64,000 nt of DNA from NCBI RefSeq assembly GCF_024171765.1, contig NZ_JAMTCI010000001.1:62001-126000 (forward strand), read 5' to 3'. Numbering within the stretch: the first letter of the stretch is position 1; each line of letters begins with the position of its first letter. The stretch comes from Williamsia deligens (GTDB lineage: Bacteria > Actinomycetota > Actinomycetes > Mycobacteriales > Mycobacteriaceae). Positions 13,468 through 34,146 of this stretch are shown piece after piece. The notes below the pieces were generated by a model. The model had not been told where the DNA came from. It worked only from the letters and a program-made list of their open reading frames with translations, and searched no databases. A program made the translations under genes and the position numbers.

Positions 13468-13642
13468 GTCGAGTGGGCGGCAGGACCCGTCGAGTGGGCG
13501 GTAGGAACCGTCGAGTGGGCGGTAGGAACCGTCGAGTGGGCGGCTGGTGCCACGCGGCGCGTCCGAACGCCCACTCGACGTCCGCAAACGCCCACTCGAC
13601 GTCCGCAAACGCCCACTCGACGTCCGGAAACGCCCACTCGAC
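13468..13642. repeat. head-to-head 21-bp repeat array (array 1)
   Basis: The core GTCGAGTGGGCG occurs four times in plus orientation, starting at 13468, 13489, 13510 and 13531, and four times inverted (CGCCCACTCGAC) starting at 13568, 13589, 13610 and 13631. The period is exactly 21 bp in both arms. The 9-bp linkers are alike within an arm (GTAGGAACC type on the left, GTCCGCAAA type on the right) but differ between arms. The arms can pair over about 85 bases. It lies between tsaE and tsaB. It is not CRISPR: linkers are too short and not unique. Confidence 0.9.
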
Positions 13643-13656
13643 GCGTGGGTCAGGGG

Positions 13657-14127
13657 TCAGGGGGTGGCGTCGATCCAGCCCCACGCGGCCGTGCGCACAT
13701 CGCTGTCGTCGTCGCGGCGCAGACGGACCAGCAGATGGCGGTCGGCCAGGCGCTCCACCACCCCGGCACCCCACTCGACGATCACGACGTCGGACTCGAG
13801 GTCGGTGTCGAGGTCCAGGGCATCGAGGTCGGCCAGGACGTCACCGCCCGTCGATCCCAGCCGGTAGGCGTCGACGTGGACCATCCCGATGCCACCCTCC
13901 CGACCCGGCCGGTGCTCCCTGGCGAGGACGAACGTCGGCGAGCTGACCCGCCCGGCCACACCCAGCCCGGCCCCGAAACCGCGCGCGAACGCGGTCTTGC
14001 CCGCACCGAGCGGCCCGTCGAGGATCACCAGGTCGCCGGGGGCGACGGTGCCGGCGATCTCGGCGCCCAGCGCCTCGGTGTCCTCGACCGTGGGCAGCGT
14101 GCGGTGGCCGGGGAGGTCGTCGCTCAT
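13657..14127 (-). CDS. tsaE: tRNA threonylcarbamoyladenosine ATPase TsaE
   Basis: 156-residue P-loop ATPase that resets the TsaB-TsaD complex in t6A synthesis. Walker A is GPLGAGKTAFARGFGAGLG, followed by the family motif VSSPTFVLAREH and the YRL block (MVHVDAYRLG). The C-terminal WGAGV matches EWG in TsaE. ATG 14127 overlaps the hydrolase stop by 4 bp. Confidence 0.95.
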   Translation of the reverse strand: MSDDLPGHRTLPTVEDTEALGAEIAGTVAPGDLVILDGPLGAGKTAFARGFGAGLGVAGRVSSPTFVLAREHRPGREGGIGMVHVDAYRLGSTGGDVLADLDALDLDTDLESDVVIVEWGAGVVERLADRHLLVRLRRDDDSDVRTAAWGWIDATP

Positions 14128-15173
14128 CGCTGGACGCTGTGGGCGACGAGGCGTTCGATCGCGTCAGAGACCACGTCGGGCTTCTCGAGCGGCAGGAGGT
14201 GCCCGCTGTCGGGCACGCCGACGAGTTCGCAGTCGCCGAGTTCGGAATGCAGTTCCACCGACCGGGCGAGCGGGGTCAGACGGTCCTCGTACCCGCACGC
14301 GACCATCGTCGGTATGCGCCGCAGCGCCGCCAGGCCGGCCGTCTCGTCGTGGTCCTCGAGCGCGCGCAGGAAGTACACGAGTGTCTCGACGGGGGTGTCG
14401 TCGATCATCGACGCGGCGAACGCGCTCAGCGAGGGCGACCGGAAGGTCGAGCCGAAGCTCGCGGCGGTGAACACCGGCGCGACGATCGCGCGGGTCACCC
14501 CGCGTCCGGTCTGCACGGTCCGCGGCGCGCGGCGCACCGAGAACCGCAGCGCGTTCAGCAACGGGTTGCGCAGACCGCGTCCGATGCCGACGTCGGCGAT
14601 CCCGCTGGCCGCGGTCGCGACCAGTCCTGCGGCGATCACTTTCTCCCCGAACAGTTCCGGCTCCCGTGAGGCCAGTGCCATCACCGCCATCGCACCCATG
14701 GAATGGCCCACGAGCACCACGGGACCGCTCGGCACGACCGCACGGATCACCGCGGCGATGTCCGCGCCGGCCTGAGCCGTCGTCATGCTCTCCGGCGTCG
14801 CAGCACCCGATTCCCCGTGGCCGCGGTGGTCGAAGAAGACCAGCCGCACGTTGTCACCCCACGCCTGCGCGAGCCACAGACGCTGGAAGTGCCAACTCGA
14901 CATGCGCAGCGCGAACCCGTGGACGAACACCACCGAGATCGGCGCGTCGGGCGGTCCCACCTCCCGCACGGCCAGCGGCACCCCGTCGTCGGCGATGACG
15001 ATGCTCGCGCGGTCGTCGTAGACCGCGTCGAACCCCACACCGTCGTGCGGATCGTCGGTCGACGACCGCCGGGTGAGGTCGCGGGCCAGACCGCCGACGG
15101 CGAGGGCGCCGAGTGTCGCGGCTCCCGCGGCGCCGGCGAGGATCCCGATCCTGCGCGGCCGTTCCGGGCTCAT
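14124..15173 (-). CDS. Alpha/beta hydrolase, membrane-anchored or exported
   Basis: 349 residues. A hydrophobic N-terminal segment (IGILAGAAGAATLGALAVGGLA, about 9-30) suggests an anchor. The catalytic core is complete: oxyanion region VFVHGFALRMSSW, nucleophile elbow VGHSMGAM, a late Asp near CGYEDRLTPLA, and His in DSGHLLPLEKP. The substrate is unknown. ATG 15173 overlaps the alr stop by 4 bp and its stop overlaps tsaE, so it belongs to the alr-tsa operon, where such a hydrolase is common in actinobacteria. Confidence 0.85.
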   Translation of the reverse strand: MSPERPRRIGILAGAAGAATLGALAVGGLARDLTRRSSTDDPHDGVGFDAVYDDRASIVIADDGVPLAVREVGPPDAPISVVFVHGFALRMSSWHFQRLWLAQAWGDNVRLVFFDHRGHGESGAATPESMTTAQAGADIAAVIRAVVPSGPVVLVGHSMGAMAVMALASREPELFGEKVIAAGLVATAASGIADVGIGRGLRNPLLNALRFSVRRAPRTVQTGRGVTRAIVAPVFTAASFGSTFRSPSLSAFAASMIDDTPVETLVYFLRALEDHDETAGLAALRRIPTMVACGYEDRLTPLARSVELHSELGDCELVGVPDSGHLLPLEKPDVVSDAIERLVAHSVQR

Positions 15174-32566: not shown

Positions 32567-32573
32567 TGCCCGC

Positions 32574-33986
32574 ATGAGCAACGACGCTGCGTCCGGCGAG
32601 TACCGCATCGAGCACGACACCATGGGCGAGGTCCGCGTCCCCGCCGCCGCGCTGTGGCGCGCGCAGACCCAGCGTGCGGTGGAGAACTTCCCCATCTCCC
32701 ACCGTCCGCTCGAGCGGACCCAGATCCGTGCGATGGGCCTGCTGAAGGCGGCGTGCGCACAGGTCAACAAGGACCTCGATCTCCTCGACGCGGAGAAGGC
32801 CGACGCCATCATCGCCGCCGCCACCGAGATCGCCGACGGCGCCCACGACGACCAGTTCCCCATCGACGTGTTCCAGACCGGCTCGGGCACCAGCTCGAAC
32901 ATGAACGCCAACGAGGTCATCGCGTCGATCGCCAAGGCCAATGGCATCGAGGTGCACCCCAACGACCACGTCAACATGTCGCAGTCGTCGAACGACACCT
33001 TCCCCACCGCCACCCACGTCGCGGCGACGGAAGCTGCTGCCACGGATCTGATCCCCGCGCTGAAGCACCTGCACGAGTCGCTCGCCGGGAAGGCATCGGA
33101 GTGGCGTGAGGTGGTCAAGTCCGGTCGCACCCATCTGATGGACGCCGTGCCGGTCACCCTGGGTCAGGAGTTCGGTGGCTACGCCCGCCAGGTCGAGGCC
33201 GGCATCGAGCGTGTCGAGGCGTCGCTGGTGCGCGTCGGCGAGCTCCCCATCGGCGGTACCGCCGTCGGTACCGGCCTGAACGCGCCCGCCGGGTTCGGCA
33301 GCAAGGTCGTCGCAGACCTGGTGTCGCGTACCGGGGTCGAGCAGCTGAGCCTGGCCAAGGACAACTTCGAGGCGCAGGCCGCCCGCGACGGTCTCGTCGA
33401 GCTGTCCGGCGTGCTCAAGACGATCGCGGTGTCGCTGACGAAGATCGCCAACGACGTCCGCTGGATGGGCTCCGGACCGCTCACCGGACTGGGCGAGATC
33501 CGTCTCCCCGACCTGCAGCCCGGCAGCTCGATCATGCCCGGCAAGGTCAATCCCGTTCTGCCCGAGGCGGTCACGCAGGTCGCCGCTCAGGTCATCGGCA
33601 ACGACGCCGCCGTCACCTGGGGTGGCGGCAACGGTGCGTTCGAGCTGAACGTCTACATCCCGATGATGGCGCGCAACGTGCTGGAGTCACTGAAGCTGCT
33701 CGCCAACGTGTCCCGGCTCTTCGCCGACCGGTGCATCAGCGGCCTCGAGGCCAACACCGACCGCCTCAAGACCCTCGCGGAGAGCTCGCCGTCGATCGTG
33801 ACGCCGCTGAACTCGGCGATCGGGTACGAGGAGGCGGCGGCCGTCGCGAAGCAGGCCCTCAAGGAGGGCAAGACGATCCGTGAGACGGTCATCGACCGCG
33901 GGCTCATCGGCGACAAGCTCTCCGAGGCCGAGCTCGACAGGCGCCTCGACGTGCTGAAGATGGCCAACCTCGACCACGAGCGCTGA
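32574..33986 (+). CDS. fumC: Class II fumarate hydratase
   Basis: 470 residues; fumarate to malate in the TCA cycle. Motifs in order: [35 protein letters not shown], the catalytic-His segment [17 protein letters not shown] and the superfamily signature [14 protein letters not shown] 32574 ([15 protein letters not shown]); no SD. Between arrays 2 and 3; converges on the glycoside hydrolase gene. Confidence 0.97.
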
Positions 33987-33997
33987 GCCGCACCACC

Positions 33998-34146
33998 CTC
34001 CCGCGACACCAATCGACTCCCGCGACTGTGATCACAGTCGCGGGAGTCGTTCTCTGTCGCGGGAACGCAGCGAGACGCCTCCCTCTACTGAAACCGCCTC
34101 CCGCGACCGTCGACACGGTCGCGGGAGGCAGTTCTGGTCGCGGGGG
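33998..34146. repeat. two head-to-head 19-bp repeat modules (array 3)
   Basis: Module A: CTCCCGCGAC at 33998 and 34017, inverted GTCGCGGGA(G/A) at 34037 and 34056. Positions 34014-34049 form a perfect 36-bp palindrome. Module B: degenerate CTCCC at 34079, full core at 34098, inverted cores at 34118 and 34137; 34096-34110 pairs perfectly with 34115-34129 (15-bp stem, 4-nt loop). All same-arm steps are 19 bp and both centres are 20 bp wide. It lies between the converging fumC and glycoside hydrolase genes and could terminate both. Confidence 0.9.

What the first reader, a model, noticed from the sequence alone, without database searches (positions are those of the whole stretch)
13468..34146. 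Three intergenic arrays share one architecture: short core at 19-21 bp period, head-to-head inversion
Arrays at 13468-13642, 32321-32511 and 33998-34146 have unrelated cores (GTCGAGTGGGCG, CGCTCC, CTCCCGCGAC) but identical design: two to five direct copies at a constant step of 21, 20 or 19 bp, a centre, then the same number of inverted copies at the same step. A step near two helical turns places each copy on one DNA face, and in RNA the arms fold back on each other. The same layout with different sequence suggests a generating mechanism or protein family, not one transposed repeat. They resemble REP/BIME clusters in spirit, but I know of no described family with this geometry.
Basis: partly seen in the sequence, partly recalled or inferred. 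Interest (0 to 1): 0.82.

Follow-up and report, generated by a model that had tools for sequence, protein, structure and literature searches.

The report
Repeat arrays tied to a nuclease
The three repeat arrays belong to repeat families that also sit on both sides of genes for a little-studied DNA-cutting protein in actinobacteria, each version of the protein with its own repeat, which points to an undescribed system that may spread or use such repeats.

Summary
In detail: all three arrays exist and belong to repeat families found elsewhere in this Williamsia-like genome or its congeners. The explanation lies outside the window. In eight congeneric genomes, most genes found for a solitary AbiEi-like plus Vsr-like (DUF559/MTES_1575) nuclease are flanked by inverted copies of their own array (27 of 58 share an inverted match of 14 bp or more between flanks; 0 of 167 control ORFs). 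Each array of the finding matches one nuclease subfamily. Array step (21-22 bp, 19-20 bp, or no step array) follows the nuclease tree: 4 changes against a shuffled mean of 23.7. At one orthologous locus the core differs between species and the genome-wide arrays differ with it: CAGTTGGGCAC pairs 37, 50, 41 and 15 in the four species with that core, 0 in the other four. Arrays favour gene 3' ends and vary between species. Y1 (RAYT) transposases were not found (0 of 8), so these are not REP/RAYT elements although organised alike. Best reading: a REP-like repeat system whose dedicated protein is an AbiEi-Vsr nuclease. Binding, cutting and mobilisation are inferred. Ten searches of an open-access library showed no description of it.

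The parts
13467..13643 (.). Array 1: 4 direct plus 4 inverted copies of GTCGAGTGGGCG at a 21-bp step, in the tsaE-tsaB gap
   Evidence: same family genome-wide; gap without array in four congeners
32321..32511 (.). Array 2: CGCTCC units at 20/19 bp around a centre hairpin, between glpX and the fumarase/aspartase-family gene
   Evidence: same family genome-wide; in this gap present in one congener, absent in five, one not testable
32381..32440 (.). Centre of array 2: two 30-nt arms, 80% complementary
   Evidence: I2; a 16-bp centre recurs in the CGCTCC arrays
33997..34064 (.). Array 3, first element: nested hairpin with 2+2 copies of CCCGCGAC at 19 bp
   Evidence: like elements flank nuclease genes L217, L220, L221
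34078..34146 (.). Array 3, second element: diverged copy of the same nested hairpin, one unit degenerate
   Evidence: two elements in G004, one in G007
13657..14127 (-). tsaE, directly 5' of array 1 on the transcript
   Evidence: TIGR00150 above cut-off
12760..13425 (-). tsaB, directly 3' of array 1 on the transcript
   Evidence: TIGR03725 above cut-off
31287..32294 (+). glpX (class II fructose-bisphosphatase), upstream of array 2
   Evidence: TIGR00330 above cut-off; start from the gene caller
32574..33986 (+). fumarase/aspartase-family lyase between arrays 2 and 3

Best explanation
The arrays are dispersed copies of REP-like repeat families, each served by its own nuclease. Shown by sequence: a family of about 300-aa proteins (AbiEi-like DNA-binding and middle region plus a C-terminal Vsr-type REase) has its gene, in most cases found, bracketed by inverted copies of a private array or palindrome; the array step depends on the protein clade; in the cleanest case dispersed copies occur only where the matching nuclease is present; copies favour gene 3' ends and differ between related species. 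Inferred: the AbiEi part binds the 19-22 bp units (AbiEi proteins bind 23-bp inverted repeats in their promoters, PMC7319586), the inverted arms bring two subunits or a hairpin together, the REase nicks or cuts there, and repair or strand transfer leaves a copy in a new gap. Units within an arm then multiply by local tandem duplication. Array 1 belongs to the nuclease at G000:C1:815552-816466, array 2 to the one at C1:269483-270448. Array 3 belongs to a subfamily found in three congeners; no matching gene was found in this genome, so here it is an orphan.
For: Longest inverted match between the two flanks: 41 of 58 nuclease genes >=11 bp against 21 of 167 control ORFs (Fisher p 2.6e-16) and 353 of 3306 mismatched flank pairs; 27 of 58 >=14 bp against 0 of 167. 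Step class on a 54-protein tree: 4 changes, 500 label shuffles mean 23.7, minimum 17. E201, D234, D247, G248 invariant in 54 of 54. CAGTTGGGCAC pairs 37/50/41/15 in the four genomes whose S9-peptidase-adjacent nuclease has that core, 0 in each of the other four. GTCGAG pairs 42, 41, 32 with a matching nuclease; 19, 8, 2, 1, 0 without one found. CGCTCC triples 45 and 29 in the two genomes whose nuclease arms have such triples (one gene frameshifted), 0-2 in the other six. Step 21 bp in 144 of 145 pairs with 16-26 bp allowed and 142 of 143 with 19-23 bp allowed. Gaps with and without arrays between species; 8 of 18, 6 of 18 and 4 of 13 arrays at sites shared with the relative compared. Y1_Tnp 0 of 8. 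Other genera: flank match >=11 bp in 14 of 20 and 11 of 12 loci; named cases in Tsukamurella and Nocardioides.
Against: No binding, cutting or movement has been seen, and target-site duplications could not be defined. Orphans: G004 has 19 GTCGAG pairs and core 3 persists here without a matching nuclease found. G001 and G005 have nucleases whose two-unit arms contain CGCTCC (L196, L199, L206) yet 0 CGCTCC triples; the triple pattern cannot see two-unit copies, so the CGCTCC comparison is weaker than the numbers look. In g9, G387 has GTCGAG arrays but its two found nucleases carry other cores, and G210 has arrays and no match. Arms also enclose at least two unrelated genes. 17 of 58 nuclease genes miss the 11-bp criterion; 6 of 20 and 1 of 12 miss it in other genera. 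Orthologous genes share flanks by descent, so tree counts are not independent.
Confidence: 0.6

Rival explanations
1. The arrays are operators. The AbiEi-like protein is an autoregulator that binds its flanking arrays; dispersed arrays are regulatory or titration sites, and the nuclease domain does something else (repair or defence). Copies spread by ordinary duplication and conversion, kept by selection.
For: AbiEi proteins bind inverted repeats at their promoters (PMC7319586, abstract and one section read). The upstream array lies shortly before the nuclease start codon, and an ECF-like motif lies in the last 90 nt before the start in 20 of 58 against 5 of 176 controls.
Against: Dispersed arrays avoid divergent gaps: 1 of 31, with 17 of 31 convergent. 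A downstream inverted arm is not needed for an operator. Site turnover between species is high.
Confidence: 0.22
2. A selfish or defence nuclease with protective or decoy repeats: the arrays sequester the nuclease or mark the chromosome, so losing them is costly, and the nuclease acts on other DNA.
For: PADLOC models of AbiEi, a conflict-system family, match 20 of 20 representatives. For CAGTTGGGCAC, nuclease core and arrays occur in the same four genomes.
Against: Arrays survive where no matching nuclease was found (array 3, G004). With the L190 protein as query, no relative in phage records or viral contigs. No toxin-like partner seen in the two neighbourhoods read.
Confidence: 0.1
3. The arrays are host transcription terminators or insulators amplified by slippage and gene conversion; nuclease genes are flanked by chance or because any gene can be.
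For: Strong predicted hairpins (z -10.5 and -10.9), 3'-end placement, arms enclosing other genes.
Against: Nuclease flanks far exceed control genes; step follows the nuclease tree; a private core follows the nuclease present.
Confidence: 0.05

Closest known systems
REP/BIME elements with RAYT (TnpA-REP) transposases, 'REPtrons' (PMC2817692 and PMC3733652 passages; PMC8266576 abstract)
   Same: Enzyme gene flanked by two inverted repeats of its own family, non-autonomous palindromic copies in intergenic DNA, repeat and enzyme co-vary, repeats without the enzyme gene exist.
   Different: The protein is an AbiEi-Vsr/REase, not an HUH Y1 transposase (0 of 8 genomes); many of the repeats here are tandem units at 19-22 bp in two inverted arms.
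AbiE type IV toxin-antitoxin, AbiEi/Rv2827c (PMC7319586, abstract and one section)
   Same: AbiEi-related N-terminal and middle region; AbiEi proteins bind (published) 23-bp inverted repeats at their own promoter.
   Different: Followed by a nuclease domain, no AbiEii toxin gene noticed next door in the two neighbourhoods read, arrays on both flanks and dispersed genome-wide.
Vsr-like/DUF559 and MTES_1575 REase families (PMC12907096 and PMC3710099 passages)
   Same: C-terminal REase-type domain with conserved acidic residues.
   Different: No repeat association in the passages read; roles named there are mismatch repair and fusions in conflict systems.
TIRtrons and CGTC-tagged repeats (PMC3733652 passages)
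   Same: Repeat families in intergenic DNA; CGTC repeats are said there to lack a dedicated transposase.
   Different: TIRtrons encode tyrosine transposases; whether CGTC repeats use a nuclease like this was not tested.

Membership tests
REP/RAYT (REPtron) | Y1 (HUH) transposase encoded in the genome and flanked by the repeats | tested here: not met
   PF01797: 0 of 8 congeneric genomes; control search rings in 5 of 14 known genomes
REP/RAYT (REPtron) | Enzyme gene flanked by two inverted copies of its own repeat | tested here: met
   41 of 58 nuclease genes >=11 bp against 21 of 167 controls
REP/RAYT (REPtron) | Many non-autonomous intergenic copies in the same genome | tested here: met
AbiE type IV toxin-antitoxin | AbiEi-family DNA-binding protein | tested here: met
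   PADLOC AbiEi 20 of 20 at E<=0.001; Pfam AbiEi_4 8 of 20 and AbiEi_1 5 of 20 at E<=0.01; the one AbiEi_4 score shown is below Pfam's gathering score
AbiE type IV toxin-antitoxin | Adjacent AbiEii (DUF1814) toxin gene | tested here: inconclusive
   Only two neighbourhoods read, without a family search: L163 by eye; purC, S9 peptidase and purB in L292 as annotated
Vsr/DUF559/MTES_1575 REase | Homologous C-terminal domain with conserved catalytic acids | tested here: met
   MTES_1575 12 of 20, DUF559 5 of 20 at E<=0.01 (L190's MTES_1575 score is below gathering); TIGR00632 vsr 2 of 20; 3hrl E 3.9e-5; E201/D234/D247 invariant, their catalytic role recalled
Classical IS/MITE | Terminal inverted repeats with target-site duplication | tested here: inconclusive
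   Inverted arms present; junctions not resolvable at about 90% identity
CRISPR array | Direct repeats with unique spacers and Cas genes | tested here: not met
   Spacers are alike within a species and arms are inverted; no cas gene search was run
Known structured RNA (Rfam 15) | Match above gathering score | tested here: not met
   0 matches in window 12500-35000

The most novel reading that the evidence does not exclude
A class of repeat-spreading system unrelated to HUH, DDE, serine or tyrosine enzymes: AbiEi-Vsr nucleases, each with its own site and site spacing set by protein geometry, propagate palindromic arrays through actinobacterial genomes. When a nuclease changes specificity, the genome's array population is replaced to match.
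Probability: 0.5. Interest if true: 0.93.

Novelty: categorically new. Interest (0 to 1): 0.87.

Why it matters
It would give a DNA target and a role to a family of nucleases with AbiEi-like domains that is found in 28 of 90 sampled Actinomycetota genomes, with up to 14 matches in one genome. It would give an origin to intergenic palindromes in a genus where no Y1 transposase was found. It offers many natural protein-DNA pairs with readable cores and steps, including one orthologous locus where the core differs between species. It makes testable whether repeat families in genomes without RAYTs are made by other enzymes.

Tried and rejected
Rejected: CRISPR, because spacers are alike and arms are inverted. 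REP/RAYT membership, because no Y1 transposase was found. A known RNA family. Chance, for arrays 1 and 3. A first flank test with 9-mers was too noisy in this GC-rich DNA (3 or more shared words in 52 of 58 genes and in 43 of 73 controls) and was replaced by longest exact inverted match. The 10-mer cluster counts in genome samples used too low a threshold: 35 clusters with a genome's own nuclease cores against 16 with reversed words in all, but equal in G007 (2 and 2), G001 (1 and 1) and G006 (0 and 0), so I do not rely on them. Insertion junctions between G002 and G003 were not clean. CGCTCC as a 6-mer is not convincing by itself in the window. With the L190 protein as query: no relative in phage records (E<=1e-6) or viral contigs (one scan, close relatives only), and 3 of 72,556 plasmid records (E<=1e-10). 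Structure prediction was not run, because the tool's description excludes proteins from genome-search loci.

Dropped rows: one search lists 60 matches, 59 loci (L192 is one frameshifted copy matched twice). L240 (own C1:174125-174994, a stop inside) had no ORF hit at the cut used, so 58 of 59 loci entered the flank test; 54 of 58 entered the tree (L185, L192, L226, L230 left out for length). L185 was given a start far too early and L192 is split, which lowers the flank count. L240's flanks were read later and are palindromes too. Fetched and not analysed: L251, L348-L350.
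Full report
WHAT IS THERE. The three arrays are as described. Array 1 is in the tsaE-tsaB gap, array 2 between glpX and the fumarase/aspartase-family gene, and array 3 just after that gene (gene names). A detector for words repeated at 17-25 bp with inverted copies finds only arrays 1 and 3 with 8-mers, against 0.0 and 0.1 per Markov simulation. Array 2, with its 6-bp exact core, is one of 12 hits where simulations give 1.5 and 2.85.

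GENOME-WIDE FAMILIES. Core 1 occurs as 42 neighbouring pairs in the own genome, all exactly 21 bp apart although 19-23 bp was allowed; the reversed pattern gives 0. In the genus, 7 of 8 genomes have it (42, 0, 1, 2, 19, 8, 32, 41 pairs for G000-G007), and 144 of 145 pairs are at 21 bp although 16-26 bp was allowed; the 9-bp spacers differ by species. In 401 genomes of the family, 13 match in 3 of 31 genera: seven of the genus, five of one other genus (g9) with unrelated spacers, and one single pair at 20 bp that may be chance; the reversed control gave 1 hit, in one genome. CGCTCC triples number 45 in the own genome. Exact core-3 pairs number 2. Because the core is fixed by the query, its conservation is by construction; the invariant step and the cross-genus recurrence are the informative facts.

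THE PROTEIN. Two arrays enclose a gene: the CGCTCC pair at G000:C1:269-271 kb and a GTCGAG pair at G007:C4:303 kb. Both genes encode proteins of about 300 aa with AbiEi similarity (PADLOC E 4.8e-14 and 3.1e-13) and, in one, a MTES_1575 REase match (E 1.2e-6, below Pfam's gathering score). A profile of the two finds 4-11 matches in each of 8 congeneric genomes, 60 in all at 59 loci. I fetched flanks of all 59 and read most of them (part of the output was cut). Most are bracketed by inverted copies of an array or palindrome private to their subfamily. Longest exact inverted match between flanks: mean 14.7 bp in 58 genes, 8.9 in 167 control ORFs, 8.4 in 3306 mismatched flank pairs; >=11 bp in 41 of 58, 21 of 167 and 353 of 3306 (related subfamilies are among the mismatched pairs); >=14 bp in 27 of 58 against 0 of 167. 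Over 20 representatives, PADLOC AbiEi models match 20, MTES_1575 12, AbiEi_4 8, DUF559 5, AbiEi_1 5 and the vsr model 2. The only solved relative at E<=1 is 3hrl, 'Endonuclease-Like Protein', over profile positions 231-303 (E 3.9e-5). Residues E201, D234, D247 and G248 (L190 numbering) are invariant in 54 of 54, as expected of an active enzyme; that they are catalytic is recalled from the REase fold, not shown.

ARRAY GEOMETRY FOLLOWS THE PROTEIN. On a tree of 54 proteins, an 18-row clade has only 21- or 22-bp steps. A 27-row clade has 19- or 20-bp steps in 25 rows, with two exceptions (L229 without a step, L222 scored 22 but with no matching flanks). An 8-row clade and the long-branched L231 have no step array; several of these have single palindromes. 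Three step classes need 4 changes, against a mean of 23.7 and a minimum of 17 in 500 shuffles. Within the first clade the step stays while the core changes (GTCGAGTGGGCG, CCGTTCGTTGGGC, CGTGTTGGGCC, CAGTTGGGCAC, all 21 bp). Orthologues share flanks by descent, so this is correlation along a tree, not 54 independent cases.

A NATURAL SWITCH. Six nuclease genes share both neighbourhoods, and seven of 58 lie beside the same S9 peptidase gene. At this locus G000 and G007 carry core GTCGAG; G001, G002, G003 and G005 carry CAGTTGGGCAC; G006 (L197) carries a 22-bp GTCGACCGTGCC-type unit. The CAGTTGGGCAC core was read from the flanks before the genomes were scanned for it. The scan gave pairs in exactly those four genomes (37, 50, 41, 15) and none in the other four, control 0, 142 of 143 at 21 bp. 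GTCGAG pairs: 42, 41 and 32 in the genomes with a matching nuclease, 19, 8, 2, 1 and 0 where none was found. CGCTCC triples: 45 and 29 in G000 and G004, whose nuclease arms contain such triples (L182; L192, frameshifted), otherwise 0, 2, 0, 0, 0, 1, the 2 lying beside G002's own related nuclease. This third comparison is weaker than it looks: G001 and G005 have related nucleases whose shorter arms contain CGCTCC (L196, L199, L206), and a triple pattern would miss two-unit copies.

ARRAY 3. Its element closely matches those on both sides of nuclease genes in G005 and G003 (L220, L221) and the downstream one in G007 (L217, whose upstream copy has diverged). The seven own-genome nuclease loci found have other repeats, so array 3 is an orphan here as far as found. 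It nevertheless follows the same gene in 7 of 8 congeners, own genome included, and by eye both sides of the stem change together between species.

PLACEMENT AND TURNOVER. Of 31 own arrays of families 1 and 2 (one, L017, is the left arm of a nuclease gene), 17 lie in convergent, 13 in codirectional and 1 in divergent gaps; the sample has 67, 160 and 74 (p 2.8e-4 for convergent, 5.5e-3 for divergent; genes by a simple home-made caller). The tsaE-tsaB gap holds an array in G000 (4+4 units), G007 (3+3) and G004 (3+4), and only 28-50 bp between the aligned gene ends in G006, G001, G002 and G003 (G005 not examined). The CGCTCC array before the fumarase/aspartase-family gene is in G000 and G004, not in G001, G002, G003, G006 or G007; G005's contig ends there. 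By flank comparison, 8 of 18 own GTCGAG arrays match a G007 array on both flanks and 1 on one flank; 6 of 18 match in G004; 0 of 18 match in G006 on both flanks and 2 on one; 4 of 13 CGCTCC arrays match in G004. The G007 and G004 sets hold the array sites listed and 46 other than nuclease genes, plus the tsaB site of G004; the G006 set is a part. One gap holds CGCTCC in the own genome and GTCGAG in G007. RNA folds are strong (z -10.5 and -10.9), which any such inverted arrangement would give.

BEYOND THE GENUS. The nuclease family occurs in 28 of 90 sampled Actinomycetota genomes at E<=1e-25. Of 20 loci that I took from 11 of those 28, 14 pass the 11-bp flank test; by eye, related repeats are visible in L276 and L280 too, while L285 and L287 show none. 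In g9 I searched 15 genomes, five with GTCGAG arrays and ten without: 9 have a match at E<=1e-30, four of the five and five of the ten. Of the 12 loci, 11 pass the flank test; GTCGAG-like flanks occur in G235, G227 and G093 (one of its two), but not at the two nucleases found in G387, and G210 has arrays and no match. Named examples: Tsukamurella tyrosinosolvens NZ_LR134464.1, a DUF559 gene between two direct copies of a hairpin of about 62 nt, and Nocardioides albidus (L127), a gene between copies of a GACGTCATACG...CGTATGACGTC element.

AGAINST. Arrays without a matching nuclease found exist (G004, core 3, G387, G210). Arms also enclose a small membrane-protein gene, orthologous in two species, and one reductase-like gene (names by eye; no nuclease by profile), so enclosure is not exclusive to nucleases: among the gene-sized enclosing pairs that I noticed in the lists, six enclose nucleases (G007, G000, G004, G002, G003, G005) and three do not. 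No biochemistry exists. Junctions and target duplications were not resolved. The ECF-like promoter motif (20 of 58 against 5 of 176 controls) was noticed after looking and needs an independent test.

MECHANISM. Published work shows AbiEi proteins binding pairs of 23-bp inverted repeats at their promoters (PMC7319586, abstract and the section on binding read). I infer that the AbiEi-like part binds the units, that its spacing preference sets 19-20 or 21-22 bp, and that the REase part opens DNA there, so that repair or strand transfer copies arrays into permissive 3'-end gaps. Growth of arms by tandem duplication is suggested by units being more alike within an arm than between arms in array 1 (by eye). 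RAYT work gives the precedent for such an organisation (PMC2817692 and PMC3733652 passages, PMC8266576 abstract), with an unrelated enzyme.

LITERATURE. Ten searches of an open-access library showed no paper linking DUF559, MTES_1575 or AbiEi nucleases to flanking or dispersed repeats. This rests on listings with starts of abstracts; three lists were capped (20 of 449, 15 of 573, 15 of 58). The 14 papers that hold DUF559 were seen as a listing only, except passages of PMC12907096. Subscription papers are not covered, so priority is not certain.

Noticed in passing
Nuclease loci L185-L239, last 90 nt before the start: An ECF-sigma-like motif (G[AG]A[AC]C, 15-18 nt, CGTC) occurs in 20 of 58 nuclease genes, against 5 of 176 control ORFs; the promoter type is recalled, and the motif was chosen after looking.
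   Followed up: partly
L345, L346 (G002, G001) and L347 (G001): CAGTTGGGCAC arms enclose non-nuclease genes: a small membrane protein (orthologous in two species) and a reductase-like gene (names by eye), as if an array had been opened by a gene or a gene had been bracketed.
   Followed up: partly
L152 (own) and L303 (G007): The same convergent gap is occupied by a CGCTCC array in one species and a GTCGAG array in the other.
   Followed up: no
L177, after the fumarase/aspartase-family gene in G006: In place of the CCCGCGAC hairpin there is an unrelated palindrome (CCGTGAGCGTTTTTGGAGGG...) at the same position.
   Followed up: no
L192 (G004) and L240 (own genome C1:174125-174994): Nuclease copies with a frameshift or an inner stop still carry flanking repeats on both sides.
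   Followed up: partly
L034 17518-17697: A tandem repeat with 33- and 66-bp steps in the own genome, coding-like and unlike the arrays.
   Followed up: no
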